Positions 4,911 through 28,745 of a DNA stretch of 64,000 nucleotides are shown here, in pieces. Made by a program: the position numbers and the translations under genes. Every line of letters starts with the position of its first letter. Positions within the stretch are counted from its first letter, which is position 1. The notes under the pieces are model-generated. The model did not search any database. It was not told where the DNA came from and worked only from the letters and a program-made list of their open reading frames with translations. This DNA comes from Leptobrachium leishanense (Eukaryota > Chordata > Amphibia > Anura > Megophryidae), in assembly GCA_009667805.1 (NCBI GenBank), contig CM019068.1:8930182-8994181 (forward strand), in the 5' to 3' direction.

Positions 4911-6035
4911 CATGTTTACAGGTGCATTCTGTGTATAGTCACTGTGTTACATGTTTACAGGCACATTCTGTATATAGTCACTATGTTACATGTTTACAGG
5001 TGCATTCTGTATATAGTCACTGTGTTACATGTTTACAGACGCATTCTGTATATAGTCACCGTGTTACATGTTTACAGGTGATAGATCTTATGGGCTTACA
5101 AACACATTCTGTATATAATCACTGTGTTACATGTTTACAGGTGCGTTATGTATATATTCACTGTGTTACATGTTTACATGTTCATTCTGTATATAGTCAC
5201 TATGTTACATGTTTACAGGTGCATTCTGTATATAGTCACTATGTTACATGTTTACAGGTGCACTCTGTATATAGTCACTGTGTTACATGTTTACAAACAC
5301 ATTCTGTATATAGTCACTGTGTTACATGTTTACAGGTGCGTTATGTATATAGTCACTGTGTTACATGTTTACATGTTCATTCTGTATATAGTCACTGTGT
5401 TACATGTTTACAGGTGCATTCTGTATATAGTCACTATGTTACATGTTTACAGGCGCATTCTGTATATAGTCACTATGTTACATGTTTACAGGTGCATTCT
5501 GTATATAGTCACTGTGTTACATGTTTACAGACGCATTCTGTATATAGTCACCGTGTTACATGTTTACAGGTGATAGATCTTATGGGCTTACAAACACATT
5601 CTGTATATAATCACTGTGTTACATGTTTACAGGTGCGTTATGTATATATTCACTGTGTTACATGTTTACATGTTCATTCTGTATATAGTCACTATGTTAC
5701 ATGTTTACAGGTGCATTCTGTATATAGTCACTATGTTACATGTTTACAGGTGCACTCTGTATATAGTCACTGTGTTACATGTTTACAAACACATTCTGTA
5801 TATAGTCACTGTGTTACATGTTTACAGGTGCATTCTGTGTACAGTCACTATGTTACATGTTTACAGCTGCATTCTGTATATAGTCACTGTGTTACATGTT
5901 TACAGGTGCATTCTGTATATAGTCACTGTGTTACATGTTTACAGGTGCATTCTGTATATAGTCACTGTGTTACATGTTTACAGGTGCATTCTGTATATAG
6001 TCACTGTGTTACATGTTTACAGGTGCATTCTGTAT
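4911..6035 (-). repeat. 39-bp minisatellite, block 4 (reverse arm) with a 492-bp higher-order repeat
   Basis: About 29 units in the opposite orientation to blocks 1-3. A distinctive segment (cgcattctg ... gtcaccgtgttac, then the tag gatagatcttatgggcttac) occurs at 5039 and again at 5531. The spacing is 492 bases and the order of variant units that follows is the same. Because 39 is a multiple of three, a 402-codon open frame crosses the block; it is a by-product of the repeat, not a gene. Confidence 0.9.
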
Positions 6036-6800
6036 TGAGGTATGTTGATGGAGATCTCCTGAGTGACATTAGACTGGGGGAAGATTTGATGGCGTCTGGG
6101 AGGTTGTTCCATATTTGCGGTGCTCTGTAGGAAAATGAGGATAGAGTCACTTTCTTTTTGTATTGTGGTATTGCAAGTAAGGTGCAGGTCCTGGATCGGA
6201 GGTTATAGGATGAAGGAACTGCTGGGGGAAGCAGCCTATTCAGGTAGGGTGGTAGCTTCCCAGAAAAACTCTTAAACACCAGGTTGGAAAGGTGAAGGGT
6301 GCGTTTAGACTCCAGCGATGGCCAGTTTAGCTCTTTTAACATGTCACAATGGTGTGTCATGTAGTTACATTGTAGCACAAAGTGACAGAATGAGTTATAC
6401 AATGTAGTAAGTTTAAGAAGGTGTGTTTGCGGGGCGGCTGCATACACTACATCTCCGTATTCAACACCTGGCATAAACATTTGTTGTACAATCTGCTTTG
6501 TTACCGCGGGGCTCAGGCAGGATTTGTTTCTGTACAGGGCACCTAGTTTGGGATAAAGTTTAGATGAGAGTTTTTTGATGTGGGGGCCAAAGGATAGATT
6601 TGGGTCTAATCAAATACCTAGATATTTGAGAGAAGTGACTGTGGTCAACGTGTCATTTGATTTTGTCCTGACACATAGATGGGGAGTTTGTAATTTGTGT
6701 AGTTTAGGTGCTTTTCCAGAGAGCATTGTGTCAGTTTTGTCAGTATTTAGGAACAGTATTATTGCTACAATAAGGTATTGCAGAATAGACGTGGCTGCCC
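6036..6800 (-). pseudogene. LINE reverse transcriptase C-terminal remnant (L2/CR1-like)
   Basis: Read on the minus strand this encodes the end of a non-LTR reverse transcriptase. A YLGI-type block near 6620 is followed by VEYGDVVYAAAP, a NWPSLESKR block, and then the typical APQIWNNLPDAI ending. At least one stop interrupts the frame near 6610. The fragment is 5'-truncated near 6800, and its C-terminal end (YLNTEC) runs straight into the 39-bp minisatellite, so the normal 3' tail is missing or replaced. The family is a non-LTR RT of the L2/CR1/Jockey type; the exact clade is not certain. It is a dead copy with no EN domain. Confidence 0.75.
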
Positions 6801-7690: not shown

Positions 7691-7882
7691 CTGATGCATT
7701 TCGCTGTAATTCGGTGCGATTCGGCGGCACTGAAACTGTTCCATACAGAGCTAATGATGCGTCTATTCCCAGAAAGCCAAATTGCACCAATAATTGCAGC
7801 AAAATGCCCTGATTTGTGATTTCAATTAAACAGGTTTAAACAGGTCAATCTAATACATTTTACAGTAATAAATGTAACATAT
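7691..7882. repeat. Left half of a degraded GGGTTATTC-family MITE (ERV target)
   Basis: Landmarks of the MITE at 990-2322 recur in the same order but diverged: ttcggcggcactgaaa, ccatacagagc, aaatgccctg, ttaaacaggttta, then aataaatg. The provirus interrupts at atat (7879-7882). The sequence after the provirus (22586 onward, atatctttaaaacgctattt) resembles the next MITE segment (atatctaataaaccattt at 1785). The provirus therefore appears to have landed in an older copy of this family. Confidence 0.5.
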
Positions 7883-7975
7883 TGTTACCGGAATCTGCTA
7901 GGTTCACTCGGGACGAAGCCGGACCGGACACGAGCAAGGATTGTCTGAACACGAGTCTCTCCAGGAAAGGCAAAC

Positions 7976-7981
7976 TTTATT
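7976..7981 (-). promoter_or_regulatory. AATAAA polyadenylation signal in the 3' LTR
   Basis: The plus strand reads tttatt, AATAAA on the coding strand, about 72 bases downstream of the TATA box. The equivalent place in the 5' LTR (near 22005) lacks four bases and has no AATAAA. Confidence 0.6.
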
Positions 7982-8052
7982 TGTGTCGTCACACAATGCT
8001 CACACAGGATTAAATCACAAAGAGTGAGCCCCGATCTCACCCCGACGAGGGG

Positions 8053-8059
8053 TTTTATA
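8053..8059 (-). promoter_or_regulatory. TATA box of the ERV 3' LTR
   Basis: The plus strand reads ttttata, i.e. TATAAAA on the minus strand, preceded by CGGGG. The same element is conserved at 22080-22086 in the 5' LTR, where it would drive proviral transcription toward lower coordinates. Confidence 0.6.
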
Positions 8060-8558
8060 CCCCGAATACATAATTAGGCACATCCCAATTAGCCCACCTC
8101 CTGGTGACACTTATCCCACCCCACGTGGGTCAGTACCTCCCCTGGTTAATAACAAAGGCATTCCATACATTGGCCGTAAATTGGCAAACTTCATGTTAGT
8201 CTGACAGTTCGTGATTTGCTGCGGCACTCAATCCGGGCCGTGCCCACCTCCCTAGAGGCTATGTTTATTTGTCACAGATAAGACATGGTCTGGTTTCTAC
8301 GCTCTCTTTGTCTCTCTGCAGGCCTTTGTGACCTTGATGTATCCATTCGTCATCCTGTCTCTCCGTGCCAAGAGCAGCCCGGATCTTCCTCCATTTTAAT
8401 TACTTCTCTGTTAATCTAACACATTCCTAAGATTCTATGTAAGCTTCATTCTAGTTTCTACTGAAATCTACCTAGTTATATTCAAGTGAACCAATATTCT
8501 AAACAAGATGGCCGGCTGGCTCATTATGGCGACCATCTCCCAGCCTGATTCCACTTCA

Positions 8559-8607: not shown

Positions 8608-10436
8608 TCACACCCCACTAGTGTTATTCTTGAGTTCCTCATACTTTAGGGGACCTATTTTCGTTGGGAACATGTCCTGTGGGATTATCAGTGGTATCTT
8701 TTGTGTCTGTGTGGGTGTCAGTGCTCTCTTGCATAGTGGCCATAGACATAGCCCTATGCGGTACATTAGTGTCCCTACGACCAAGATCACCACTATCATC
8801 AGAATCATGGATCCAATCTGTGAGATAAATCTCAGGATGGATCCGAACCACTCTCCGATTGCTCCGAACCCACGGAGTGGATTCCAGCCTTCAGCAGCAA
8901 TCCTCCTTGCTGTGTTCTGCAACTGTGCTACCTTCTCCTGGTGATCTTGGATTACCTGGTAATAGTCAGGGACGTCATGTGTGGTGTTCCTGATGAAGGT
9001 GCAACATTCGTAATGCATTGTCATTTCACACAATCCATTCAAGGCCGCACTGATTTGTTCTAGGGCCATATCCTGTATCATCTGCACCTTCCGTATCTCA
9101 CGCACCTCCAGATTCAGCAACTGAATGTCCATACTAGTCTTATTCAAAATTTCATCCATCAGACTGGCATAACTGTTCATTCTTAACATCAACTCTCTTC
9201 CCCATCCAGTCCATGCCGGCAACCATGACCATGTTCGATCCACCTTTTTGAACAACTCTCTCTTCTGTCTTTCAAACACCATTGGGTACCTAGGGTGAAG
9301 TGTTGTGTCTGAATTAGTGTCTTCTCCCCTCACCCTCTGGATTGGGATCAATTTAGCCAAATAACATTCCCGTTACTGTAGGTGGTACCCATGTGTAACA
9401 CACCCTTTCACAGCACACCTGGTACCCTCCTTTCACTATAAATGGTGACAAATGTAGTGTTCCCTTTGATATTTCTATCATCAGTTGTCTCAGTCGTTTC
9501 ATCATATCCAGTTGCACTCTGCCTCCCATTCGTCACATTCGCAATCACCTCCTCCTGTTCGCTTGTGAGCTTTCTACATCGTATGTATAGAAAATTTGAC
9601 TGCTCCTTTGTGTCAAATGTGCAGATATATGATGTCCAGTTAAATTTGCTTGAATAACATAACCCACCCCCGTTATTTGTTTCTTTATCTGTTCCTAGTT
9701 GAAAACACCATTCTGGTGGGTACACTGGTCCTGTTATGGGGTACCCGGGACTGAATACTTCTGTTTTTTCTCGTGGTGCATCGAAAGCATATATTGTGAC
9801 ATTTCCTGATGCAAACATACTCAAATTCATTGGAACAGAGGCAAATGGTATGTGAATTGTCTCTGGGTGCAGTCTACTACACACCCAGCATACAATTTGC
9901 CCAGACTTTTTAGCACAGTCATATTTAAATTGCACAAATAAGTATCCTCTTGGCATAATCTCGGATATCGCCTCTCGCTTTTGTCTCCACATGGTACGGT
10001 TCTCCATCACCGGGTGCGTACCATTCCAGGTTTTGGTGGTGCTTGAGCACTTGGGGCATGCTCCACTTGACAGTCCATAAATCAAATTTGCGAGATATAA
10101 AATCAGTACCACAAATGCCCCAAATGTCAAAATCCCTTGGGCAATTCTTTTCACAGTCACATAAACCCAATTCCTCCCCACCGGAATTTCAAAAATAAAA
10201 GACATTTCCGGATGATCGAGGGTGGGGGCTGGGCCCCTAAAAAACACCCTTGGGGTATCCCCCGGGGGATCCCTTTGTTCCCCTGTTGGTGGATGGTCAG
10301 GCCTTATTGTGTCCATCAAAACACCCACTTGTGAAATCATTTGGGTGCTTTCAGTTGGATCATTCAGATGCTCACGGCTGTGGTCTTTGTCAGCTTTAGC
10401 CTCAGTGGATTGGTCTCGTTGGTGACGACCTTCCAT
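8608..10436 (-). pseudogene. env: ERV env, SU and TM, broken
   Basis: Envelope glycoprotein gene, responsible in retroviruses for receptor binding and fusion; here inactivated. The first frame (10436-9408, 342 codons) starts inside the integrase C-terminus, an overlap usual for gamma-type viruses. It has a long N-terminal region of about 100 residues, one membrane segment at residues about 101-121, a furin-type RQKR at 151-154, then CWVC at 183-186 and several N-glycosylation sequons. The TM part (9360-8608) has a second RQKR near its start, a C-x7-CC cluster around residues 111-120 and a hydrophobic anchor near residues 180-205. SU and TM are separated by a stop and frame change at about 9410-9360. 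The pre-CWVC membrane segment followed by RQKR resembles a cleaved leader peptide more than an ordinary signal peptide. Confidence 0.88.
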
Positions 10437-11595
10437 GCTGGTTCAGGACTGGCTGCAGCTTCTTTCAGTCTGGAGTGATGTATCCACGGGACCACCTCGG
10501 CAACCTTTACTGCTGTAGGGGTTGATAACAGGACAAGGTAAGGACCTCTCAACTTTGGGCCTAGTGGGTCATTTTCCACTCTTTCACCCATACTGAATCA
10601 CCTGGACAATACTCATGCAGTGGGGGATATAAAAAGTGAGGTATATTATCTCCCACCCAAGTATTCAGTTTCTGCATTGATTTACCTAACAGTACAACCT
10701 GATCATTTAGTTTAGTTTCTCCCAATGCCCGAAGGTCCCCCCTTAGTCCACTAATCAGAGGGGTAGGCCGTCCAAACATGAGTTCGTATGGACTTAGCTT
10801 CAATAAGGGGGTTGGCCTGCACCTAATGTGCAAGAGGACTATCGGCAGCACATCCAACCAGCCTAGCAACGTCTCTTGGCACAATTTGGACATCAAAGTC
10901 TTTAGGGTACGGTTCATTCTCTCGACTTTTCCCGAGCTTTGGGGCCTGTAGGCAGTATGTAGCTTCCAGGTGATGCCCAACAGGCGGGCTAGCTGTTGTA
11001 AACAGTTCTGTATAAATGCAGGGCCATTGTCCGACCCTATTTCAAGAGGAAGTCCATAACATGGTATTATTTCTCTCATCAGACTCTTCACCACTTCCAC
11101 AGTCTTTTCTGTTCTTGTTGGGAAGGCTTCCACCCATCCTGTCAAAGTACACACCATTACCAGTAGATATTTGTATCCTTTGCAGGGCGGCAGCACTGTG
11201 AAGTCTATCTGTAACGATGCCATTGGGGATAGCCCGATTGGCTGCTTCCCTGGAGGTTGAGATGGGCCTGTTCTTGGGTTATTTTTGGCACATGTCACGC
11301 ACTGCTGGGCTATTGCTTTGCAGACTACTGACAGTCCTGGTACGTAGAAATGTGGCTCCAATTGCTGTTCCATCATTTCTCTCCCTCCATGGGTACTTGC
11401 GTGGAGCGTTCTTACAATCTCAGGAGCCAATGTTGCTGGTAGGACTATTTGACCATTCTTCAACTGGAACCATCCGTCTTCTCCATATCCGCCTTGTTCT
11501 TCTGACAGACATTTCTTCTCTTTCTCTGAATATACAGGTGTCCATTCACTCAGTGGCGCCAGTAGGAGTGCAGCCACCACTGGTTTCCCTTTGTA
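10364..11595 (-). pseudogene. pol (IN): ERV integrase
   Basis: Integrase region of pol, which inserts viral DNA into the host genome. The main frame (11580-10561, 339 codons) has an HHCC zinc-binding region (H60, H64, C94, C97 of that frame) and a complete D,D-35-E triad: D126 in QIDFTVLP, D184 in GSDNGPAF and E220 in SSGKVERMNR. The C-terminal domain (GPYLVLLSTPTAVKV, PWIHHSRLK) is in another frame (10591-10364), so a frameshift lies at about 10570. Upstream, the frame reads back through KGKPVVAALLL to a TGA at 11596-11598 and then into the OGFr-like segment. The env start codon at 10436 lies within it. Confidence 0.92.
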
Positions 11596-12222
11596 TCATG
11601 CCAATTCTCCACGGTTTCCCCAGACAAATTCTTCTTTTGGGAAATAGTATCGCCATGCGAAGAACAGCAGATCTTGTCTGTCTTGTGAATTTCTTACTGC
11701 TGGTATGAAAAAGTTCATTGCACTTTTCTTCATTCTTGGCAGCTTGTTTTTGATAAGGATCTCCTTGAGGAAGAACCTCACCAACGGGGCTTGGTATTCT
11801 TCTGCTCCCAACTCTCTCAGATTTAGCAGTATTCGTGTAATCCGCAGATTATTATGAGGGTTGTTGTTAAATTTTCGAAATGTTCGGCGAAATTTTCTGC
11901 TCGTTCAACTTCGGTTACTTTTGTATCTTCTTCACACTCCCCCATTAATTTTACGCTGAAGAATTTCAGCATCATTTTATATACTCTGGAGTCTTTGCTG
12001 AACTTCTGAGGTGTTAATCATAAGACGTGTCTCTGGAGGGTCCAGAGGAGTGGAGTAGAAATTTCGGCCTTGGGACCGGGTTGGGAAGAGCCATTGGATA
12101 TAATCATGATTGAGTTCTAATAGTTCGTAGTCATTGTTCCATTTGTGCAAAATAATTTCAATAAATTCGCCTCCAGGTTCAAATTTTCTCCAATTCATGT
12201 AGAATGCGTAGTTTGGCATGGC
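11596..12222 (-). pseudogene. OGFr_N-like domain captured in ERV pol, frameshifted
   Basis: This about 208-codon stretch sits between RNase H and integrase. On the minus strand it contains the hallmark words of the opioid growth factor receptor conserved N-terminal domain: NWRKFEPGGEFIE, NDYELLELNHDYIQWLFP, then (other frame) RVYKMMLKFFSVKLMG, ERAENFAEHFENL, and finally HNNLRITRILLNLRELG, EEYQAPLVRFFLKE and FFAWRYYFPKEEFVWG. These occur in the family order and cover nearly the whole domain. Frame changes lie at about 11988-11995 and about 11868; the second looks like a single-base loss in an aac run. Its end is in the integrase frame, separated only by a TGA. Its start overlaps the end of the RNase H frame in a different frame. 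No introns, poly(A) or obvious target duplication surround it. In host OGFR proteins the domain's molecular role is poorly defined. A domain acquired by the retrovirus is favoured over a processed pseudogene inserted later. Confidence 0.8.
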
Positions 12223-13246
12223 AGGGTTGGTCCTCTTGCTTGCAGAGCAGGACTTTGGCTTGATCAGTTGTTAGCAATGGTTTTGCAGCCGCTTTTGCGG
12301 CCTGGTCAGCGCGCCTGTTGCCTTTTGGGATTTCATCATGACCTTTCTGGTGGCCACGACAGTGCATGATACTGACAGCACTTGGTTTCCATACAGCTTC
12401 TAGGAGAGCCGCGATTTCAGCTGCATACTTGATTTGTTGTCCTGTGGAAGTGAGCAGGCCTCTTTCTTTGTAGAGTGCACCATGTGCATGGACCGTCATG
12501 AAGGCGTACTTGGAGTCAGTGTAGATATTCACTCTTTTGCCTTCAGAGGTTTCTAGAGCTCTGGTTAGGGCTGTTATTTCAGCCAGTTGTGCAGATGTAT
12601 GGCCTGGTAGTGGATTTGCTTCAATAATCTCTTCTGCTGAGACAATTGCATAGCCGGAGACTTTCTTCCCATCATCCATGTAGCTGCTACCATCAGTGAA
12701 CAACTGTAGATCGTATTTGTCTAGGGGTACGTCTTTCAAATCTGGTCTGCTACTGAACACTTCTTCCATGACTTGGACGTATTCATGATCTGGATCCTTC
12801 ACAGTCAGGCAGTAAAGTAGCAGGGTTCAAGGTAGCGATGAGGTCCAAATGAACCCGTGGATTCTCACACATCATAGCTTGGTACTTCGTCATCCGGCTG
12901 TTGCTGAACCAGTAGCTTCCTTTCACATCCAGCAGGACTTTGACAGCATGGGGCACCTTGACATGAAGAACTTGTCCAAGGGTCAGCTTGTCTGCTTCTG
13001 CTATCAGCATTGCGGTGGCTGCCACGGCTTTCAGGCATGGGAGTAGGCCACAGGGTCAAGTTGCTTGGAGAGATAGGCCACAGGCCTTAGCCAAGAGCCA
13101 AAACTTTGAATCAGCACTCCTGTTGCTGTTTGATTGTGTTCATGCACGTACCGTTGGAAAGGCTTGCTGTGATCTGGCCGTCCCAGTGCAGGAGCTTCCA
13201 TTAACAAAGTCTTTAATTTCAGGAAATTTGCTGTTTGCTCTTCTTC
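12223..13246 (-). pseudogene. pol (RT-RH): ERV RT connection and RNase H
   Basis: The RNase H frame (12802-12179) has the catalytic-type blocks LFTDGSSY, AEITALTRALE, TDSKYAF and the HCRGHQKGHDEI / NRRADQAAK ending. These are the DEDD residues and histidine loop expected for gammaretroviral RNase H, which degrades RNA in RNA-DNA hybrids. The connection region just upstream (13025-12783) includes LLDVKGSYWFSNSRMTKYQAM in a different frame, and 13246-13025 is further broken by frameshifts. The RNase H frame runs through ADQAAKAAAKPLL and then overlaps the start of the OGFr-like segment. Confidence 0.88.
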
Positions 13247-13634
13247 TCAGAGGAAAGGGTCCTGTTCTCCCCCCTTTGTGGCCTGATGAAGGGGCTTGGC
13301 AATATCTGCGAAGTTGGGGATCCACAGGCGGCAGAAGCCTGCAGCTCCCAGAAACTCACGGACTTGTCTTAAGTACTTTACACTCTGTTTGCATATTTGT
13401 GCTTTCTTTCTTGACACTCTGTAACCTGCTTGGCATAATAGATGTAGCAGGGCTTTTGTGGCAGATAAACAGTCTTTTTCTGTGGGAGAAGCCAGTAATA
13501 AATCATCTACATACTGTAGTAAGACAACTCTGTCTGGCTGAGCGTTGAAGGAGAGGAGGTCTTGGCTGAGCGCGCATCCGAAGATCGTGGGCGAGTTTTT
13601 GAAACCTTGAGGGAGGCGTGTCCAGGTCATTTGA
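13247..13634 (-). pseudogene. pol (RT): ERV RT palm, downstream of the Gypsy insertion
   Basis: The frame contains [20 protein letters not shown], the active-site motif [10 protein letters not shown] (YVDD), [12 protein letters not shown] and [16 protein letters not shown]. This is the second half of a gammaretrovirus-type RT polymerase domain. It begins at the 5-bp duplication tttga (13630-13634); the first half of RT is at 19651-20357, on the other side of the Gypsy element. Confidence 0.93.
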
Positions 13635-14495
13635 TGTCAGGTTCGTGTTTGTGGAGTTCAGGATGCGGGACAAGCCGTTTTGGGGGAAAGTCTGGGTGTG
13701 ATAAGGTGTATAGTGGATAACGTAAGGCTCAGTACCTTGCAGGGTTTCCAGAAGAGAGTAGTCGATGATACAAGCTGAGGTTCGGTACACGGAGAAGCTG
13801 ATGGAGGGTAGTCGGTGGTACAAGCAGAGGTTTGGCACACGGTAAATCTGATCGAGGGTAGTCGGTGGTACAAGCGGAGGTTCGGCACACGGTAAATCTG
13901 ATCGAGGGTAGTCGGTGGTACAGCGGAGGTTCGGCACACGGTAAATCTGATCGAGGGTAGTCGGTGGTACAAGCGGAGGTTCGGCACACGGTAAATCTGA
14001 TCGAGGGTAGTCGGTGGTACAAGCGGAGGTTCGGCACACGGTAAATCAGGTCGGAAGGTCATAGGCAGGTATGCTCAGGTGAGGGAGGTTAAAGGGAAGG
14101 AACAGGACAACCAAGCAATGAGTTTTGGAGAGGCTGGGATTTAAATAGGGCGCCTGTGGGAATTGGGCCAATCAGGAGAGAAGTGTATCTGGTTACCTGG
14201 GGATACTGGATTCTGATTGGTTGGTGACGCCATCTTGGAGGAACCACGTGGGACGCCGAGACGCGTGGCAGCCGACGCCGGGGGTGAGTTGCTGCAGGGG
14301 GAATCCGTGGTGTCGCGGGGGTGCGTGGCTGATTGAAGGGGTCCCTGGTATGGAGCGCCGACACCGGGGGCCACCGTGCCGCGGGGACAGCCCTCACCAC
14401 CGCCAAGGAAACCGCAGGGGGTCCGGAGTCGCGGCGCGGGGTTGCGGCTCGGGGCTCGGCGGTGGGGGAGCCCGTGGGTCTGCTGAGACCTGACA
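13635..14495 (-). repeat. Gypsy 3' LTR
   Basis: Begins tgtcaggttcgtg and ends gagacctgaca on the plus strand. Contains a block of 50-bp tandem units (about 13811-14046) and a CG-rich half (14220-14495). Minus-strand reading has a ctatttaaatccc TATA-like word near 14140. It differs from the other LTR by a one-base deletion and two substitutions in the third tandem unit, and one CpG-type change near 14430. Confidence 0.95.
13811..14046. repeat. 50-bp tandem repeat in the Gypsy 3' LTR
   Basis: Just under five units starting tcgagggtagtcggtggtac. The first carries the agaggtttgg variant, the rest gaggttcgg; the third has lost one base. The matching array in the 5' LTR is at 18960-19196. Confidence 0.9.
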
Positions 14496-17400
14496 GTACC
14501 CCCCTCCTAGGACGACCCCTCTGGGGGCGTAACGGGCCAGGTTTGGAGGCCCGTACCCGAGAAGGGGCATGGATTTGGGTCGCGGGTTCCCATGAATTCT
14601 CCTCAGGTCCATATCCCTTCCACTGGATGAGATATTCTAACTTATTGTAGCGAGAACGGGAATCTAGAATACGTTGGACTTCGAATTCCTGAAGTCCCTC
14701 TATGGTGATCGGGTCTGGAGGAGGGGGTGAGCGCTGGGGAAAGTGGTCCTCGGTCCAGGGCTTTAGAAGGGAGACATGAAAAACTGGATGGACTTTAAGT
14801 GAGGGAGGGAGTTGGAGGCGGACAGCGACAGGGGAGATGATGGAGACGATAGGATAGGGGCCTACGTATTTAGGACCTAATTTTTTAGTTGGACACGACA
14901 GTTTGAGATTTTTGGTGGATAGCCATACTTTCTGTGACGGTTGATAAGCAGGGGCTGCTTTGCGATGTAGGTCGGCATATTTCTTGTAGGTGTTTTGGGA
15001 TTCTAATAGGGTGTTCTTCGCGAGGATGAACCCTCGTTGTAGATTCCGAATATGGTCGTTGACCATAGGCAAGGGACTTTGGGGTGGAGTGTCTGGAAGG
15101 ACTGAGGGATGAAACCCATAGTTAATGAAAAAAGGGGATTGTTTGATAGAGGCGTGTGTTTGGGAGTTATACGCAAATTCCGCTGAGGTGAGGAGGTCGG
15201 ACCAATCGTCTTGTAGATATGAGGTATAGCAACGCAAGTATTGTTCTAGGGTTTGATTCGTTCTTTCGGTCTGCCCATTGGAGTGGGGGTGGAAGGCAGT
15301 GGACAGACAGACGGATATTTGTAACAGCGTACAGAAGGCTTTCCAGAACCTTGAGGTAAATTGGGGGCCACGATCTGAGATGACGGTTTCTGGGGTGCCA
15401 TGGAGTCTGAAAACATGGTGAAAAAAAAGGTCGGCGGTGCTCTTGGCGGAGGGTAATCCTTGGGTAGGGATGAAATGGGCCATTTTAGAAAGTCGGTCTA
15501 CTACCACCATAATAGTGGTATGTTTTCGGGACGGGGGTAGGTCGACAATGAAGTCAACGGAAATACTAGACCATGGGCGAAGCGGGACGGGTAGAGGTTG
15601 GAGGAGTCCCGTTACTTTAGATCTAGGGACCTTACAACGGTTGCAGGTATCACAAGCCTTGACGTATTTCTGAACATCAAAGGAGACAGAGGGCCACCAA
15701 AAGTGTCGACGGATAAGGTCTAGTGTTTTTCTGATGCCTCCGTGTCCTGCCGTGGGGGCATCGTGATTGAGGCGTAGGATTTCTAATCGTTTGGCAGGTG
15801 GTACGAATAAGCGTCCGGAGTTGTGGGGTGTGGTGGTATCACGGTCTTGGAGGTCTTTGAGAAGGTGGGTCTGAGTGGCAAGGAAATGTCCCTGATGTAG
15901 AACGGTGTCTTCTTCGTCTGTGGATGTTGGGATTTCTTCTGACAGGCGGGAAAGGGCATCGGCCTTTCCGTTTTTGCTTCCTGGGCGATAGGTTATGTGA
16001 AAGGAAAAACGAGAAAAAAACAAGGCCCAGCGGGCAAGTCTAGGGCATAGTCGGCGTGCCGATCTCAGGTACTCTAGATTTTTATGATCTGTGAAGATGG
16101 TTGTGGGGTGAAGGGTGCCTTCCAGGAGATGCCTCCATTCTTCAAGGGCATTTTTTATGGCCAGGAGTTCTCTGTCGCCCACGTTGTAGTTGATTTCGGC
16201 TGGTGATAGTTTGCGGGAAAAAAAAGCTACGGGGTGTAGACGATCATTGTTTTCGTCTCGCTGGGAGAGGACGGCTCCGGTGGCGATTCCTGATGCATCC
16301 ACCTCCAGGGAATAGGGTTTAGAGGGGTCAGGTAGTAGCAGGATGGGTGCGGTGGTGAAGCGGGTGCGTAAGCTATCAAACGCTTCTTGGGTTTCTTCTG
16401 TCCATAGGAAGGGGATGTCTTTCCTGGTTAGTTGGGTGAGGGGATGGGCTAACTTGGAAAAATTACGAATGAATTTGCGGTAAAAATTAGCAAACCCAAT
16501 AAAGCTTTGCACTTCTTTTTTTGTACGAGGGCGTGGCCACTTGGTGACGGCTTCGATTTTCCGGGGGTCCATTTCTATACGACCCGGGGTGATTATGAAC
16601 CCTAGAAATTCGATTCGGGGAGCGTTGAATATACATTTCTCGATTTTGACGTACAGATTGTGGGACCGTAGGCGGGCAAGGACGGTATTAACATGTTGGT
16701 GGTGGTGTGTCAAGGACTCGGAGTAAATAAGGATATCGTCCAGGTAGGCGACTACGTATACATCCAGTAGATCGCGTAGGATATCGTTTATGAAATGTTG
16801 GAAGGCAGCTGGGGCGTTACATAGCCCATATGGCATAACAAGATACTCAAAATGGCCATATCTAGTGCGGAAGGCCGTCTTCCACTCATCCCCTTCACGT
16901 ATGCGCAATAAATTGTACGCTCCCCTAAGGTCAAGTTTCGTGAAAACGGTGGCCGTCTTTAATTGGTCTAGAAGTTCGGGTATAAGTGGTAAGGGGTACT
17001 TGTTCTTTACGGTGATCTTGTTTAATTCTCGATAGTCCACACACGGGCGAAGACCCCCATCCTTTTTTTCAACGAAAAAGATGCCCGCTCCTGCAGGGGA
17101 AGAGGAAGGTCGGATAAAGTTCTTCTCTAGATTTTCCTGAATGTACCCCTTTAGTACCCGTAGTTCCGGTCCCGACAACGGGTAAATGCAGCCATAGGGT
17201 ATGGCAGCTCCAGGGAGGAGGTCAATGGGGCAGTCGTATACACGAGGGGGGGGGAGTTTTTCTACCCCTTTTTTGCAGAAGACGTCTGCGTAGTCCGCGT
17301 ACACTTGTGGTAGGGTCACCTGAGGGGTTTTCAAGTTCTGATCAAGGATAGACAGGATGGTACCAGTGGTGTGTGCGAGACATTGAGTCCGGCAGTGGGG

Positions 17401-18333
17401 AGAAGAGAAGGTGAGACGACTAGTGGTCCAGGAGATTGTGGGGTCGTGTTTTACCAACCAGGGTAACCCTAGGATGATGGGGAACAGGGGTGATTTGACC
17501 AGATCGAATCGTAAGGTTTCTTTGTGCCGGTCACCTATATATATCGTAAGGGATATGGTTTCAGTGGTAACGGGACCGGATATCAAGGGAGACCCATCAA
17601 CACTTTGGATGCTTAAGGGTTTAATTTTATTTTGGTGAGGTATACATAGAAGAGTTGCCAGGGTAGTGTCCATAAAGCAGCCGCTTGCGCCGGAATCGAT
17701 CATAGCGGGAAGGGTCACTGAGTGTTTATCCCACTGTAATAGAATAAATATAGACAAATGTTGAGGTTCGACAGGGTGCAAATCTTCTAGACGCGGATTA
17801 TCGGGTATTTTATGGTCGTTACCTCGATGGAACTTGACCTTGTCGGGGCATTCACGGGCCATGTGGTTGGGTTTACCACAATAGAGACACAGATGATGGT
17901 TTCGTCGTCTTGCGAGTTCTTCAGGTGGTAGGTGCCCCTTCACTAGCCCGATTTGCATGGCTTCTTCGACGGGTGCTGAAGTAGTAGGAGGGGAGGTGAC
18001 GGGAGTGGGTGTGGAAAAGAAAGGTCGCCTTGTGGGCGGAGTTGGGGTTTGGGCGACTCGTTCCCTTCTCCGTTCTCGTAGGCGTCGGTCTATGTTGGTG
18101 ACCAACTGTATAAGAGGTTCGAGGGAGAGAGGGGCTCGGACGTGGGACAGGTCATCTTTTACCTCGCTGGACAATCCGACCTTGAATTGACAGACCAGTG
18201 CGGTTTCGTTCCAACCTGTCTCTATGGACAGAGTCTTGAATTCAGCGATATAGTCCTCCACCGGGCGTTTCCCTTGTCTAAGGTCTCGTATGGAGGTCTG
18301 GGCTGACTCAAAACGATATGGGTCATCATACAA
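14089..18333 (-). CDS. pol: Gypsy gag C-terminus and pol polyprotein with chromodomain
   Basis: A 1414-codon open frame. Residues 1-90 are capsid-type gag. A CCHC knuckle (CLYCGKPNHMARECP) lies at about 149-163. The protease DSGASG is at 213. RT spans about 380-600 with the active site YLDD at 530-533. RNase H begins with EVDASG near 677 and has TDH near 748. The integrase zinc region is about 857-900, and the D,D-35-E residues are D927, D987 (ISDRGPQF) and E1023 (GQTERTNQ). A chromodomain lies at about 1216-1256 (FEVQRILDSR, YLIQWKGYG, NSWEP). Chromodomains in such integrases direct insertion toward particular chromatin. The last 135 or so codons lie inside the 3' LTR. The first methionine of this frame is not the true start: homology continues upstream in another frame, into the gag entry. 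Confidence 0.93.
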   Translation of the reverse strand: MYDDPYRFESAQTSIRDLRQGKRPVEDYIAEFKTLSIETGWNETALVCQFKVGLSSEVKDDLSHVRAPLSLEPLIQLVTNIDRRLRERRRERVAQTPTPPTRRPFFSTPTPVTSPPTTSAPVEEAMQIGLVKGHLPPEELARRRNHHLCLYCGKPNHMARECPDKVKFHRGNDHKIPDNPRLEDLHPVEPQHLSIFILLQWDKHSVTLPAMIDSGASGCFMDTTLATLLCIPHQNKIKPLSIQSVDGSPLISGPVTTETISLTIYIGDRHKETLRFDLVKSPLFPIILGLPWLVKHDPTISWTTSRLTFSSPHCRTQCLAHTTGTILSILDQNLKTPQVTLPQVYADYADVFCKKGVEKLPPPRVYDCPIDLLPGAAIPYGCIYPLSGPELRVLKGYIQENLEKNFIRPSSSPAGAGIFFVEKKDGGLRPCVDYRELNKITVKNKYPLPLIPELLDQLKTATVFTKLDLRGAYNLLRIREGDEWKTAFRTRYGHFEYLVMPYGLCNAPAAFQHFINDILRDLLDVYVVAYLDDILIYSESLTHHHQHVNTVLARLRSHNLYVKIEKCIFNAPRIEFLGFIITPGRIEMDPRKIEAVTKWPRPRTKKEVQSFIGFANFYRKFIRNFSKLAHPLTQLTRKDIPFLWTEETQEAFDSLRTRFTTAPILLLPDPSKPYSLEVDASGIATGAVLSQRDENNDRLHPVAFFSRKLSPAEINYNVGDRELLAIKNALEEWRHLLEGTLHPTTIFTDHKNLEYLRSARRLCPRLARWALFFSRFSFHITYRPGSKNGKADALSRLSEEIPTSTDEEDTVLHQGHFLATQTHLLKDLQDRDTTTPHNSGRLFVPPAKRLEILRLNHDAPTAGHGGIRKTLDLIRRHFWWPSVSFDVQKYVKACDTCNRCKVPRSKVTGLLQPLPVPLRPWSSISVDFIVDLPPSRKHTTIMVVVDRLSKMAHFIPTQGLPSAKSTADLFFHHVFRLHGTPETVISDRGPQFTSRFWKAFCTLLQISVCLSTAFHPHSNGQTERTNQTLEQYLRCYTSYLQDDWSDLLTSAEFAYNSQTHASIKQSPFFINYGFHPSVLPDTPPQSPLPMVNDHIRNLQRGFILAKNTLLESQNTYKKYADLHRKAAPAYQPSQKVWLSTKNLKLSCPTKKLGPKYVGPYPIVSIISPVAVRLQLPPSLKVHPVFHVSLLKPWTEDHFPQRSPPPPDPITIEGLQEFEVQRILDSRSRYNKLEYLIQWKGYGPEENSWEPATQIHAPSRVRASKPGPLRPQRGRPRRGVLSGLSRPTGSPTAEPRAATPRRDSGPPAVSLAVVRAVPAARWPPVSALHTRDPFNQPRTPATPRIPPAATHPRRRLPRVSASHVVPPRWRHQPIRIQYPQVTRYTSLLIGPIPTGALFKSQPLQNSLLGCPVPSL
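14499..14508 (-). promoter_or_regulatory. Gypsy polypurine tract
   Basis: The plus strand cccccctcct sits three bases from the LTR edge, reading AGGAGGGGGG on the minus strand just before TGTCAGG. This is the expected plus-strand priming site. It overlaps the coding frame that continues into the LTR. Confidence 0.7.
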
Positions 18334-18763
18334 GTCGTCCAGTGCAGTGACAAAGGCTTCCCAGGATGCAAGAGCGGGGTCGTTGCTGGTTATGGTGAGC
18401 CCATAGTCGAGGTTCGCCTTGTAACAGCGATATCACGGTTTTGATTCGGACGTCCTCAGAGTGGTAGGTTCGGGGCTTTAGGGAAAACAGAAGCTGACAG
18501 TCCGTGAGAAACACCCGATATTTATTCCGGTCACCGGAAAAGCGGTCTGGCAACGGTACAAGGGGTTCAGGAGCCATAGCATCAACCAAGGGTAGATGTG
18601 TTGGTAGGTTGGGGATAGGGAGGGGCGAGGCGGAGGCCATAAGGTCTGAGACCTGGTTCTGGAGTTGAGCCTGTCCGGTTTGTAAATCTTGGACGGTCTG
18701 GTTTAGATTCCCAATCTGGCGGGACATTGTGTTGAGGGCTTCGGCTATATCCGCGAGCTCCAT
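18326..18763 (-). pseudogene. gag: Gypsy gag N-terminal part, frameshifted
   Basis: The frame starts with ATG at 18763, only about 20 bases inside the 5' LTR edge. The N-terminus (MELADIAEALNTMSRQI) is coiled-coil-like with Q/L/N heptads, followed by a proline-rich stretch and a capsid-type LPDRFSGDRNKYRVFLTDC block typical of Ty3/Gypsy gag. Near 18395 (after LWAH) the homologous reading moves to the frame that continues into the pol polyprotein; this frame ends about 25 codons later. One base gained or lost explains it. The position in mid-capsid argues against a programmed frameshift. Confidence 0.85.
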
Positions 18764-18783
18764 TCTGCAGGCTTGGTTGTATC

Positions 18784-19645
18784 TGTCAGGTTCGTGTTTG
18801 TGGAGTTCAGGATGCGGGACAAGCCGTTTTGGGGGAAAGTCTGGGTGTGATAAGGTGTATAGTGGATAACGTAAGGCTCAGTACCTTGCAGGGTTTCCAG
18901 AAGAGAGTAGTCGATGATACAAGCTGAGGTTCGGTACACGGAGAAGCTGATGGAGGGTAGTCGGTGGTACAAGCAGAGGTTTGGCACACGGTAAATCTGA
19001 TCGAGGGTAGTCGGTGGTACAAGCGGAGGTTCGGCACACGGTAAATCTGATCGAGGGTAGTCGGTGGTACAAGCAGAGGTTTGGCACACGGTAAATCTGA
19101 TCGAGGGTAGTCGGTGGTACAAGCGGAGGTTCGGCACACGGTAAATCTGATCGAGGGTAGTCGGTGGTACAAGCGGAGGTTCGGCACACGGTAAATCAGG
19201 TCGGAAGGTCATAGGCAGGTATGCTCAGGTGAGGGAGGTTAAAGGGAAGGAACAGGACAACCAAGCAATGAGTTTTGGAGAGGCTGGGATTTAAATAGGG
19301 CGCCTGTGGGAATTGGGCCAATCAGGAGAGAAGTGTATCTGGTTACCTGGGGATACTGGATTCTGATTGGTTGGTGACGCCATCTTGGAGGAACCACGTG
19401 GGACGCCGAGACGCGTGGCAGCCGACGCCGGGGGTGAGTTGCTGCAGGGGGAATCCGTGGTGTCGCGGGGGTGCGTGGCTGATTGAAGGGGTCCCTGGTA
19501 TGGAGCGCCGACACCGGGGGCCACCGTGCCGCGGGGACAGCCCTCACCACCGCCAAGGAAACCGCAGGGGGTCCGGAGTCACGGCGCGGGGTTGCGGCTC
19601 GGGGCTCGGCGGTGGGGGAGCCCGTGGGTCTGCTGAGACCTGACA
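18784..19645 (-). repeat. Gypsy 5' LTR
   Basis: An 862-bp partner of the 13635-14495 LTR, with the same tgtcagg/cctgaca ends and 50-bp tandem units at about 18960-19196. It is followed on the minus strand by a 20-base leader and then the gag ATG. No clear match to a standard tRNA primer-binding site was recognised in that leader. Confidence 0.95.
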
Positions 19646-19650
19646 TTTGA

Positions 19651-20357
19651 TGGCGCGCTCCCGTGGTAGATTCCTCCCACTGAAATGCAAAAAGGGGCTG
19701 GCTTGCTGGAGCCAGTTGGATGCAAAAGAAAGCGTCTTTTAAATCAAGCACCATGTAATATTTTGTATCTCCGGGAATTAATGCCAATAAATTGTATGGA
19801 TTGGGAACCACAGGGTGTAGAGTTACTGTGGCTTCGTTGACGGCTCATAAATCTTGGACTGGGCGATACTCTTGTGTGCCCTCTTTCAGTACTGGCAACA
19901 GGGGTGTGTTCCACGGTGACACGCAGAATTTCAATATACCGTGGTCTTTAAGTCTCTGTAAAGGTGTCTGGATATTCTGCTTGGCTTTTTGTGGGATATG
20001 ATATTGTCTTAAAGTAACAGGCGCTGCACCAGGTTTTAAATCAACGTACACTGGGGGAATATTTACAGCTATTCCGGGCGGATTTTCCTCCGTCCACACC
20101 CCAGGAATTCCGAGGAGTAGTGTGTGCGGGTCCGGGGCCGCCGGCAGAGTTGGTGCTGTGCGCCATTCTTCCTCTCTTGGCATAATCACTGCAATTTTTA
20201 CAGATTGGGTGTGCTGGTTGGCTGGGCTGTACTGCCGTGTAGAGCTGCCACTCTCAGGCAGTTCTAATCGAGCATGTCCCCCGGGAAGAAATGTAATTTG
20301 GGCTTGCAATTTGCAAAGGATATCCCACCCCAGGAGCTGGATGGGACATTCGGGCAT
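19651..20357 (-). pseudogene. pol (PR-RT): ERV protease C-terminus and RT N-terminal half
   Basis: It starts with the protease C-terminal signature ECPIQLLGWDILCKLQAQI (gammaretroviral proteases end CPxPLLGRDLL-like). The RT N-terminus follows: YVDLKPGAAPVTLRQYHIP, LKDHGILKFCVSPWNTPLLP, EYRPVQDL, then in a shifted frame VVPNPYNLLALIP and VLDLKDAFFCIQL (the first catalytic aspartate region), ending at FQWEE next to the Gypsy insertion. The shift lies near 19845. The protease active-site half is missing. Confidence 0.92.
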
Positions 20358-20813
20358 ATACTAAAATTCATGTTCAACATTATGCCCACCCACACTACAT
20401 TTTCGAGAAGCAAGGAAAGGATACTTAGCAGACACCCCCATTGCTCCCATAATATCAACTTCATTATTTGGGGGTACCTGCTTCTTGTTTTGTCCTGCCA
20501 TCATTATAAAATTACTTTTATCTTTTACACAATACCTCAATATATCTATATACGGGTACTGTTCAGGATGTCCGCATTTCCCGGTGACTTGGGAATGCAC
20601 TCTCTGTATTAGCTCCGGGTCCATTGACCCCTGCTCTGGCCACTCTGGAACTAACAGTGGCCATACAATTGTACACATTAATGTTAGTTTCTCCTTAGTT
20701 AACTCTACACCATAATCATGCGTTGCATATAGCGCTTCAAAATTCCGCACCATATATCCTAAGGGCGTCTCACCCTTCTTTACCTTCTTGGGTTTGGATG
20801 ACCCGTGACCCAT
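20358..20813 (-). pseudogene. gag: ERV gag matrix fused to a protease remnant
   Basis: An ATG at 20813 opens MGHGSSKPKK, a myristoylation-type N-terminus (glycine 2, serine 6) with a basic patch, as in retroviral matrix. Matrix homology (GYMVRNFEALYATHDYGVEL, WPLLVPEWPEQG) runs to about residue 130. The last dozen residues (GGHNVEHEF) look like protease sequence, followed by an in-frame TAG and then MPECPIQLL. Capsid, nucleocapsid and the protease active site (DTG) are absent, so an internal deletion joins matrix to the protease C-terminus near 20390. Confidence 0.8.
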
Positions 20814-21890
20814 TGTTACTCTTTTAAGGGCAGTAACCTTTTTACAATACAGATATTACTTTTCAGCAAAAACACTTGAAATTTACTGTCTGGTACTTCA
20901 GTCAACAATTCATATATATCGGATTCGCTTCCTTCATCAGTAGCCGGACTGCAGTCACCTGAGCCGGAAACGTACCTTGGGAGTCCACTCTCAAGTTTGC
21001 TTTCTCGCTAGGCGAGTAGGCGCTCGATCTCTCACAGCACTCAAATCACTCACAGCACATACTGTACCAGATACTTTCAGTACAAAACAATACATAGACA
21101 ATTCAACTCTTTCTACTAGCCGAGGGCACACCGTCCCTCCTTTTGGCTCCTTATACCCCGTTAATTGAACTCTAACTCTTGACTGCTTGTGACTATGTGC
21201 ACCCCGTTCTATAACTACACTTCCGTCTGCAATTCCAATTTGCCTATGGGTAATCTACCCACCCAGCACCACTGTCTCTGCAGCTACCACTGGCCCCAAC
21301 GAGCCCTCTTCACTACACGACGTACACACTAGCACTGACTCAGGGCTCTCAGCCCAGTCAAAGAAATCCCTCCTCCTTTCCTTGTCCACGTGCAGAAGCT
21401 CTGTTTACAAACACTGACTATGACTATGCAACTCCACGTGGCTACTCTCTCCCTCTCTTACAGAACTACCATTTGGTTAACATCCGATCCCCCGGGTCCA
21501 GACATGCGCTAGCCACTCTGGCTCCTTTGCTTGTCCGTGCTATCGGCGGCGGGTTCGGTATGTCAACGAGACCGTGGCCGCGGGTCTCCTTATTCAACTA
21601 TGGTCGGACATTTCCCTTTATACCGGTATCTCTGATACACATACAAACATAGAAGACACTTTACCTATCGCCACGCTGCTCGCTGTATCCTCAGACTCGG
21701 TGGTGTGCCAGTGTTCCCGGGCCGGGGGTCCGTTTGGGACGAGACGAGGTCCACTGAACAGGAAATCCTGCTTGGCGCCTGCAGATGTCAGCTCACCTTC
21801 AACGGACGCCCAACCAACGGGATCACTCGCACCTGCAGTCAACCGCTACAGTGTTCAGCAGTCGTTGCCGTGCCAGCAAGGGCCCATTTC
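20814..21890 (-). other. ERV 5' leader
   Basis: About 1.1 kb between the PBS-like site and the matrix ATG, long for a gamma-type leader. It should hold the packaging signal and splice donor, but no specific site could be assigned by eye. No conserved frame was recognised. Confidence 0.5.
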
Positions 21891-21913: not shown

Positions 21914-22585
21914 TGTTACCGGAATCTGCTAGGTTCACTCGGGACGAAGCCGGACCGGACAAGAGCAAGGATTGTCTGAACACGAGTCTCTTCAGGAAAG
22001 GCAAACTTTGTGTCATCACACAATGCTCACACAGGATTAAATCGCAAAGAGTGAGCCCCGATCTCACCCTGACGAGGGGTTTTATACCCCGAATACATAA
22101 TTAGGTACATCCCAATTAGCCCACCTCCCGGTGACACTTATCCCACCCCACGTGGGTCAGTACCTCCCTTGGTTAATAACAAAGGCATTCCATACATTGG
22201 CCATAAATTGGCAAACTTCATGTTAGTCTGACAGTTCGTGATTTGCTGCGGCACTCAATCCGGGCCGTGCCCACCTCCCTAGAGGCTATGTTTATTTGTC
22301 ACAGATAAGACATGGTCTGGTTTCTACGCTCTCTTTGTCTCTCTGCAGGCCTTTGTGACCTTGATGTATCCATTCGTCCTCCTGTCTCTCCGTGCCAAGA
22401 GCGGCCCGGATCTTCCTCCATTTTAATTACTTCTCTGTTAATCTAACACATTCCTAAAATTCTATGTAAGCTTCATTCTAGTTTCTACTGAAATCTACCT
22501 AGTTATATTCAAGTGAACCAATATTCTGAACAAGATGGGCGCCTGGCTCATAATGGCGACCATCTCCCAGCCTGATTCCACTTCA
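21914..22585 (-). repeat. ERV 5' LTR
   Basis: Partner of 7883-8558, flanked on the right by the target duplication atat (22586-22589). TATA box at 22080-22086. A four-base gap relative to the other LTR (near 22005) removes the AATAAA. Sixteen substitutions separate the two copies by hand count. Confidence 0.92.
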
Positions 22586-22790
22586 ATATCTTTAAAACGC
22601 TATTTATTATTTTTATTAATTTTTTTACAAAAAAAATCTTTTTTAAAACACCCTTTTTGCTGTTTTAATTTTTTAAAAGATTTTTTCAGGCTTTTTTATT
22701 ATTTTTTAAAGGACCTTTTTTATTGTTTTGATTCTTTTACTACATTTTAATCTATTTAAACTCTTATTAGGAGATACTGATACCGTTGAT
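22586..22790. repeat. Right half of the MITE split by the ERV
   Basis: T-rich sequence starting atatctttaaaacgctattt, resembling atatctaataaaccattt and the following T-rich block of the MITE at 1785-1920. It continues the segment at 7691-7882 across the provirus. The match is diverged and the far terminus is not identified. Confidence 0.45.
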
Positions 22791-25940: not shown

Positions 25941-26664
25941 ACACTGAAAATACTAAAAATAAAATACAGCCGGTGCTACAATGAAAATACCAGCCATAAA
26001 AAATAAAATACAGCCGGTGCAGGACAGCGGACTCTGGAGATCCTGCGAGGTGCAGGGCAGCGGACTCTGGAGATCCTGCGAGGTGCAGGGCAGCGGACTC
26101 TGGAGATCCTGCGAGGTGCAGGGCAGCGGACTCTGGAGATCCTGCGAGGTGCAGGGCAGCGGACTCTGGAGATCCTGCGAGGTGCAGGGCAGCGGACTCT
26201 GGAGATCCTGCGAGGTGCAGGGCAGCGGACTCTGGAGATCCTGCGAGGTGCAGGGCAGCGGACTCTGGGCATTGGGGTTCAGAGTTTTCAGACAGACGAG
26301 AAACTGTGGGTGACATAAAGACAGTACCTATGTAGGCTGTTCTCTGGTCCGGAGTCAAGGCTTGATGGTACCGGGGAACAGCAGCTCGATGAGGCTTTCC
26401 AGCAGAACAGCAGACAGATCCAGGAACGCCAATATACCCCATTAACTTAGTGTTACGGCCTGGACCACCGTGAGGATGTCTGGCTGTCTGTTTAGGCCAT
26501 TCCCCCTCTGTTTCCACGGAACTCCACTCAGAGGAACCAGACTCCTGGTCAGAATAGTTTGGGAAGTCTTGATGGCTCGAAGTGATGGGCCTCACACTTG
26601 TAAGCAGGATTGGCTCGGTCTCCATCTGCACAACTGGATCTCGTTCTGTGGATTCCTGCTCCAT
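25939..26664 (-). pseudogene. Unrecognised 241-codon frame in a decayed LTR element, with 11-residue repeats
   Basis: The N-terminal half is acidic and serine-rich (YSDQESGSSEWSSVETEGEW); the C-terminal half is mostly the 33-bp array. It lies downstream of the zinc-knuckle gag at 27141-27661, separated by an L2-like insertion, so it may be the continuation of that element's coding region. No function is assigned, and the in-frame array makes authenticity doubtful. Confidence 0.4.
26021..26268. repeat. 33-bp minisatellite
   Basis: Seven to eight near-identical units containing ggcagcggactctggagat and cctgcgaggtgca. The 33-bp period keeps an 11-residue repeat (SPESAALHLAG) in the minus-strand frame of the neighbouring ORF. 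Confidence 0.9.
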
Positions 26665-27977: not shown

Positions 27978-28745
27978 TAGGCTTGTGCACCGATTTTTTT
28001 TTTTTCGTTTTGATTCGGTTCGGTTCGTTCGGATTTAGAAAATTTTTGTTTCGACTCGTTTCGGCCGATTTTCGTTTAGTTTCGGTTCGTTTCGTTTTTC
28101 GTATCTACTTTTTTTTGTGATTTCGGAAATTTTTGTGTTTTTCGGAACGTCTGTTCTCCTCGTTTCAAAGTGTCTATTCATTTTGACGTAAACTAATGGT
28201 TTTTCGGATACGATAATTATACGATACGATAATTCTGCCGATACGATAATTCTGCCATTGAGATTTCTCATGTTTTACAAGAAGGATACATTGAGATTTC
28301 TCATGTTTTACAAGAAGGATACATTGAGATTTCTCTGGTTTTACAAGAAGGATACATTGAGATTTCTCTGGTTTTACAAGAAGGATACATTGAGATTTCT
28401 CTGGTTTTACAAGAAGGATACATTGAGATTTCTCTGGTTTTACAAGAAGGATACATTGAGATGTGAATGATACAAAACTTAATTACAGAATCAGCGATAT
28501 AAATACAATGTCCGAAATTACTGAAATGGAGCCGGAATCACGAATGGAATGAAAATGAATTTCGATTTTACACATTTCTAGTCCATTCGAAAATTCCGAA
28601 AATTTTTCGTTTTGGCACGAAAATTCGTTCGGATCTGCCGTTTTCGGATCCGAAAATTTTCGGAAAATCGGTCGAATCCGAATGCACGAATCGGGAAATT
28701 TTGTGAAAATTCCGAAATTCCGAAATCCCGAAACGCACATCCCTA
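27978..28745. mobile_element. hAT MITE with perfect 8-bp target duplication, inside the LTR
   Basis: Begins taggcttgtgcaccgat and ends cgaaacgcacatcccta. It is flanked by gtgtacag at 27970-27977 and 28746-28753. It is the reverse orientation of the family at 2477-3354. The middle of the element is replaced by a 33-bp tandem array (28258-28464). Confidence 0.85.
28258..28464. repeat. 33-bp tandem array inside the hAT MITE
   Basis: About six units containing attgagatttctc and ttttacaagaaggatac. The unit resembles the dispersed ttttaccaggaaggatacat family (4098, 23609), so a piece of that repeat seems to have been inserted and then amplified. Confidence 0.85.

What the first reader, a model, noticed from the sequence alone, without database searches (positions are those of the whole stretch)
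11596..12222. OGFr_N-like domain between RNase H and integrase of an endogenous retrovirus
Seen: about 208 codons on the minus strand carry the ordered signature words of the opioid growth factor receptor conserved domain (HDYIQWLFP, HNNLRITRIL, QAPLVRFFLKE, FFAWRYYFP). They are spread over three frames, then run into the integrase frame past a single TGA. Known: lentiviral dUTPase of EIAV and FIV sits at exactly this pol position. Inference: an ancestral retrovirus captured an OGFR-family sequence as a pol domain, now decayed. I know of no retrovirus described with this domain.
Basis: partly seen in the sequence, partly recalled or inferred. Interest (0 to 1): 0.92.

Follow-up and report, generated by a model that had tools for sequence, protein, structure and literature searches.

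The report
Retrovirus carrying an opioid-growth-factor-receptor domain
A family of recently active retroviruses in a frog genome carries, inside its enzyme polyprotein, a piece captured from a host growth-regulating gene, and it has kept that piece intact, which suggests that the virus uses it.

Summary
Three minus-strand segments each exceed the Pfam OGFr_N cut-off and tile nearly the whole profile in order, between RNase H and integrase of a provirus with paired LTRs. The window copy is a decayed member of a large family in the same genome (3.54 Gb, probably Leptobrachium leishanense). OGFr_N lies between RNase H and integrase in 20 of 20 loci fetched through OGFr and follows RNase H in 16 of 16 loci found through RNase H. 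In ten of 150 listed places it sits in an open frame of 1439-1440 codons. LTR pairs of ten copies differ by 0-2.3%; three have no mismatch. dN/dS of OGFr is 0.04-0.22 in the 73 of 91 pairs that could be computed. Viral OGFr sequences form one clade (100/100) near anuran OGFR genes: one capture of spliced host mRNA fits best. Gag and RNase H are gammaretrovirus-like. Among database rows listed, only L. leishanense has the fusion; ten literature searches listed no description. Function is inferred: a virion-delivered Pol subunit that binds OGFR partners at the nuclear or cell-cycle stage of infection.

The parts
21914..22585 (-). 5' LTR of the provirus (672 bp)
   Evidence: alignment; 16 mismatches of 672 aligned bases to the 3' LTR
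7883..8558 (-). 3' LTR of the provirus (676 bp)
7879..7882 (.). target site duplication ATAT (other copy 22586-22589)
   Evidence: flanks
20460..20819 (-). gag remnant (matches residues 8-127 of a family member's gag; later gag pieces give no hit in the window)
   Evidence: tblastn
19656..20360 (-). 5' part of pol, separated from the rest of RT by a nested Ty3 element; ORF 19845-20360 has no Pfam match of its own
   Evidence: identified by its place in the open pol frames of other copies
13031..13636 (-). RT remainder, one in-frame stop
   Evidence: RVT_1 1.5e-16, RT_RNaseH_2 4.6e-9
12179..12826 (-). RNase H frame; best solved relatives are MLV-type RT/RNase H
   Evidence: RNase_H 1.4e-27; best E 4.7e-52
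11611..12228 (-). OGFr_N domain in three segments (two internal frame changes) of this copy
   Evidence: 84-88% nt identity to main-lineage copies, 80.6% to L025, 66-73% to divergent lineages
11596..11598 (-). TGA between OGFr_N and the integrase frame
   Evidence: open frames printed run through this place
10561..11595 (-). integrase ORF, 344 aa, open
   Evidence: rve, Integrase_H2C2
9408..10442 (-). probable envelope, surface part (named from position and by eye; no significant Pfam match)
   Evidence: tblastn to open frames in other copies
8608..9372 (-). probable envelope, transmembrane part (named from position and by eye; no significant Pfam match)
13635..19645 (-). nested Ty3/gypsy element (LTRs 13635-14495 and 18784-19645, TSD TTTGA); not part of the retrovirus

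Best explanation
The window holds a decayed copy of a high-copy, recently active, gammaretrovirus-like endogenous retrovirus whose Pol polyprotein has an extra domain, OGFr_N, in frame between RNase H and integrase. The domain was captured once, most likely from spliced mRNA of a tetrapod (probably anuran) OGFR gene. It then diversified with the virus through several lineages while its protein sequence was held by purifying selection (shown from sequence; the donor is inferred). How it most likely works (inferred, about 0.4): Gag-Pol is made by read-through of the TGA between gag and pol, the OGFr domain is packaged with the enzymes and released by the protease free or joined to integrase, and in the newly entered cell it binds whatever the N-terminal domain of cellular OGFR binds. 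It would thus act at the nuclear or cell-cycle stage on which a simple retrovirus depends, much as virion-borne lentiviral dUTPase, from the same Pol position, adapts the virus to the state of the cell.
For: Domain and position: (a 903-aa stretch of one natural open frame: RNase_H 191-332, OGFr_N 354-560 at 6.7e-73, Integrase_H2C2 616-671, rve 687-781). Family: (5871 first-look OGFr_N places; 150 scored, all over the cut-off; by my count 133 of 150 without a stop inside), 20 of 20 loci with RNase H-OGFr-integrase, 16 of 16 RNase H-selected loci with OGFr, 17 of 20 MLVIN_C-selected loci with OGFr. Youth. Selection: dN/dS 0.04-0.22 for OGFr; 0.04-0.10 for integrase and at most 0.11 for RNase H in computable pairs. 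Co-inheritance: OGFr distances track integrase (r 0.85) and RNase H (r 0.87) among 15 copies, 0 of 2000 permutations as high. One clade. No intron interrupts the domain in the 19 open frames printed or in L019. The residues IQWLF are invariant in 44 viral and cellular proteins.
Against: No expression, proteolysis or binding data. The dN/dS copies were chosen for an open OGFr frame, which favours low values, and dS is saturated in 18 of 91 pairs and above 1 in many others. The host's own OGFR gene was not found, so the donor rests on other species; the AU test does not reject cellular anuran genes forming a clade without the virus (p 0.27) or the virus joining fish (p 0.24; 0.085). Three of 20 loci lack OGFr in the stretch read. 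Pol proteins are few per particle (recalled), which weighs against a stoichiometric decoy.
Confidence: 0.85

Rival explanations
1. The domain acts as a dominant-negative or ligand/partner decoy: it relieves the growth brake that cellular OGFR exerts so that infected cells divide, which gammaretroviruses need for nuclear entry.
For: Cellular OGFR is described as acting at the nucleus and inhibiting proliferation through the p16 pathway (PMC10377280, passages); alpha- and gammaretroviruses replicate mainly in dividing cells (PMC4531489, passages); the capture holds the conserved domain without the long C-terminal part seen in cellular OGFR proteins.
Against: No partner or ligand site is mapped; Pol is made at low level (recalled); no test here separates this from the best explanation.
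Confidence: 0.25
2. The domain is a structural spacer or folding aid in Pol; its host ancestry is incidental.
For: Mostly helical domain predicted with high confidence (most 10-residue blocks of the domain above 90 pLDDT); it sits at a junction where other retroviruses tolerate an insert.
Against: The most conserved residues are those that cellular OGFR conserves down to bivalves and a sponge, which a spacer would not need.
Confidence: 0.12
3. An OGFR retrocopy or gene fragment landed by chance in one provirus and is hitchhiking.
For: The window copy alone looks like this (three frames).
Against: The domain is at the same place in the sampled lineages, in frame in many, under purifying selection.
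Confidence: 0.02
4. Several retroviral lineages captured OGFR independently, or the cellular domain came from the virus.
For: Deep divergence of the lineages (OGFr of the divergent copies 55-66% identical to L009).
Against: One viral clade at 100/100 inside jawed-vertebrate OGFRs, with cellular members in bivalves and a sponge outside; same junction; distances track integrase and RNase H.
Confidence: 0.04

Closest known systems
dUTPase of non-primate lentiviruses (EIAV, FIV, CAEV, visna) between RNase H and integrase
   Same: Extra domain at the same Pol position, a product of the Gag-Pol precursor (PMC4531489, passages).
   Different: OGFr_N is another Pfam family with no enzyme activity known to me, and the virus here is gammaretrovirus-like.
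Crocodilian ERVs that captured KIT-ligand and nectin3
   Same: ERV lineages with a captured, open host mRNA and signs of purifying selection (PMC4299795, passages).
   Different: There KIT-ligand was taken up without loss of a viral domain and nectin3 replaces env; here the captured piece is a domain inside Pol, and gag, pol and probable env frames are all present in copies such as L010.
Cellular OGFR / OGFr_N family (PF04664)
   Same: Whole conserved domain, mostly 46-52% identical to cellular vertebrate OGFR-type proteins.
   Different: No N-terminal extension or C-terminal region; embedded in a retroviral polyprotein.
Gammaretroviruses (murine leukaemia virus type)
   Same: Gag_MA and Gag_p30 in one copy, MLV-like RNase H, MLVIN_C matches in family copies, gag and pol in one frame with a stop between, 4-bp duplications in the window copy and plainly in 6 of 10 others.
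   Different: Extra OGFr_N domain; TGA as the gag-pol stop in 7 of 7 copies checked; the integrase's best solved match is PFV.
Retroviruses reported as invading vertebrate genomes, one host being L. leishanense (PMC10435555)
   Same: Young ERVs with identical LTRs, this species among the hosts (passages).
   Different: The passages seen do not mention OGFR; whether those are the same family was not tested.

Membership tests
OGFr_N (PF04664) | Profile match over the curated cut-off | tested here: met
   three segments; 150 of 150 scored; 6.7e-73, positions 5-206 of 208
OGFr_N (PF04664) | Met-enkephalin binding and growth inhibition of cellular OGFR | not testable with these tools
   needs protein experiments
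Gammaretrovirus-like (class I) ERV | MLV-type gag (MA, p30) | tested here: met
   on one family member: Gag_p30 3.4e-56, Gag_MA 5.4e-11; the window copy lacks most of gag
Gammaretrovirus-like (class I) ERV | Pol of gammaretroviral type | tested here: inconclusive
   RNase H best to MLV-type; MLVIN_C found in family copies and database members but not in the window's integrase ORF, whose best solved match is PFV
Gammaretrovirus-like (class I) ERV | gag and pol in one frame separated by a stop | tested here: met
   TGA in 7 of 7 copies, which were chosen because the two frames abut; read-through itself not tested
Gammaretrovirus-like (class I) ERV | Placement in a tree of RT with named retroviruses | not tested
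   no such tree was built
Lentiviral-type dUTPase insert | dUTPase domain between RNase H and integrase | tested here: not met
   only OGFr_N matches there; same position, different domain
Host gene capture by a retrovirus | Intronless host-derived sequence, viral copies one clade among host genes | tested here: met
   the intron pattern of the host's own gene was not seen

The most novel reading that the evidence does not exclude
A gammaretrovirus-like virus has recruited the conserved domain of a host nuclear growth regulator as a fourth, virion-delivered Pol component next to integrase. It has kept it under selection through a long radiation and is or was very recently still invading its frog host, so that OGFR biology (nuclear envelope, cell-cycle brake) is a step of retroviral infection.
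Probability: 0.5. Interest if true: 0.93.

Novelty: new variant of a known kind. Interest (0 to 1): 0.86.

Why it matters
The layout of retroviral Pol is highly conserved, and dUTPase is the known insert before integrase. A second, unrelated, host-derived insert at the same junction, kept by selection in an abundant family, would show that this junction accepts new functions. How the OGFr_N domain itself works is poorly known, and I found no solved relative; a virus that keeps only this domain points to the part and the residues that matter and gives a route to its partners. It also shows that protein sets of this frog contain retroviral 'OGFr' models (34 of 120 rows listed).

Full report
What is in the window. 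A minus-strand provirus is bounded by LTRs at 21914-22585 and 7883-8558, which differ at 16 of 672 aligned bases and are flanked by ATAT on both sides. Its pol is split by a young nested Ty3/gypsy element (LTRs 13635-14495 and 18784-19645, 3 mismatches in 861). gag is reduced to a stretch at 20460-20819. RNase H (12179-12826) and integrase (10561-11595) are open; the probable envelope is in two pieces and is named from its position, since it has no significant Pfam match. Between RNase H and integrase lie three segments that match OGFr_N at profile positions 3-82, 84-120 and 110-204 of 208, with E-values 9.9e-22, 4.7e-6 and 2e-31, each over the curated cut-off.

It is a family, not an accident. 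The window's own genome (G000, 3.54 Gb) gives 5871 first-look OGFr_N places; this is a count of candidates, not of verified copies. Of the 150 scored, all pass the cut-off; by my count 133 have no stop inside and 10 lie in open frames of 1439-1440 codons. I fetched 20 of these places with flanks, chosen from that list by frame length and score. All 20 carry RNase H, OGFr_N and integrase in this order on one strand. Because that sample was chosen through OGFr_N, I drew two others. Sixteen loci, hand-spaced along 150 hits of an RNase H query (7598 first-look places; loci), all have OGFr_N after RNase H, 13 of them with integrase within the 1.2 kb read; in the other three only the first part of OGFr_N is present. 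Of 20 loci from the top 25 hits of the MLV integrase C-terminal model (three rows already were skipped and two left out for room), 17 show OGFr_N at the expected place (in two of them only its first residues fall inside the stretch) and three show protease, RT or RNase H there. RNase H running straight into integrase was not seen in these 56 loci.

The domain is in frame in young copies. One natural open frame reads RNase_H, OGFr_N (6.7e-73), the integrase zinc-binding domain and rve without a stop over the 903 residues scanned. In seven copies, chosen because the gag and pol frames abut, the codon between them is TGA; in others, such as L009, L012 and L016, the frames do not abut. LTR pairs of ten copies show 0-15 mismatches over 667-694 aligned bases (Jukes-Cantor 0 to 0.0226); three show no mismatch, one of these with a gap; 4-bp duplications are plain in 6 of 10 and not clear in the rest. 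Copies with open frames therefore exist and the family was active very recently. A survey of 2004 vertebrate genomes lists L. leishanense among species with invading retroviruses (PMC10435555, passages); I did not test whether that is this family.

Selection. Over 194-197 codons, 14 copies with an open OGFr frame give 91 pairs; 73 have a finite estimate and these range from 0.04 to 0.22 in dN/dS; 18 are saturated. Integrase gives 0.04-0.10 and RNase H at most 0.11 in the computable pairs. OGFr is held less tightly than integrase: in the pair L009-L010 dN is 0.086 against 0.026 and dN/dS 0.08 against 0.04. The copies were picked for open frames, which lowers the ratio somewhat; pairs with dS above 1 are unreliable, but those with dS 0.3-0.7 lie between 0.07 and 0.22 as well. 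Amino-acid distances of OGFr track those of integrase (r 0.85) and RNase H (r 0.87) over 15 copies; none of 2000 permutations reached these values.

Origin. In trees of the OGFr_N domain all viral rows form one clade with support 100/100 (17 rows, 21). Adding older, more host-like copies moved the clade from a weak position beside tetrapods to one among anuran cellular OGFRs (ERV plus anurans 91/76). The data do not reject cellular anuran genes forming a clade without the virus (AU p 0.27) or the virus joining fish (0.24; 0.085). The domain has no intron in the open copies read. A single capture of spliced OGFR mRNA from a tetrapod, probably a frog, is the simplest reading. The gene of the host itself was not recovered: the whole-protein query brought no match that I could assign to it, and the shorter query did not complete.

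Which animal. The best protein matches with the fusion are UniRef entries of Leptobrachium leishanense (34 of the 120 rows listed of 846 hits; 7 of the 120 listed of 404, the only listed rows there with retroviral domains). They bear automatic names such as uncharacterized protein, RNase H type-1, integrase or OGFr conserved domain-containing protein. The genome handle itself carries no name. ERVs are often masked from protein sets (recalled), so their absence from other species there is weak evidence.

How it may work. The domain is predicted with high confidence as a compact, mostly helical unit. Over 44 viral and cellular proteins the residues IQWLF are invariant and HNNLRI nearly so, down to bivalves and a sponge. 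This favours retention of a cellular partner-binding function over a mere spacer. A short motif ([KR]-[VIM]-L-x-C in most copies printed) sits before the domain and could mark a protease site; this is a guess. Cellular OGFR is described as a nuclear-membrane protein that enters the nucleus and restrains proliferation (PMC10377280, passages). Gammaretroviruses replicate mainly in dividing cells, and lentiviral dUTPase from the same Pol position matters in non-dividing cells (PMC4531489, abstract and passages). I therefore favour a virion-delivered domain acting at the nuclear or cell-cycle stage, with a decoy of host OGFR as the main sub-reading. None of this is shown.

Novelty. Capture of host mRNA by ERVs is known (PMC4299795, passages), and the positions of dUTPase in retroviruses have been described (PMC8278194, passages). 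Ten searches of open-licence PMC listed no paper on an OGFR domain in a retrovirus. The passages seen of PMC10668855 concern cellular OGFR in amphibians and lizards. I rate it a new variant of a known kind: a known process and a known position, with a new kind of domain.

Noticed in passing
window 13635-19645 (-): Very young Ty3/gypsy element nested in the ERV's RT, with an open 1447-aa frame and LTRs differing at 3 of 861 sites.
   Followed up: partly
BFVD entry A0A481YX38: A Marseillevirus (LCMAC202) also has a protein named opioid growth factor receptor that matches the model, so the family seems to have entered a giant virus as well.
   Followed up: no
P0019 (Serrasalmus), P0021 (Clarias): Fish proteins in which the OGFr-type words occur twice in tandem (by eye).
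   Followed up: no
P0044 and relatives (L. leishanense): One viral lineage has roughly 90 extra residues between RNase H and OGFr_N (by eye).
   Followed up: no
gag-pol border of L010, L011, L013, L014, L015, L017, L018: The stop between gag and pol is TGA in 7 of 7, where murine leukaemia virus has TAG (recalled).
   Followed up: no
window 25983-26301 and 28223-28486: Two arrays of 33-bp tandem repeats.
   Followed up: no
window 6001-6609 (-): End of a LINE-like reverse transcriptase ORF (by eye).
   Followed up: no
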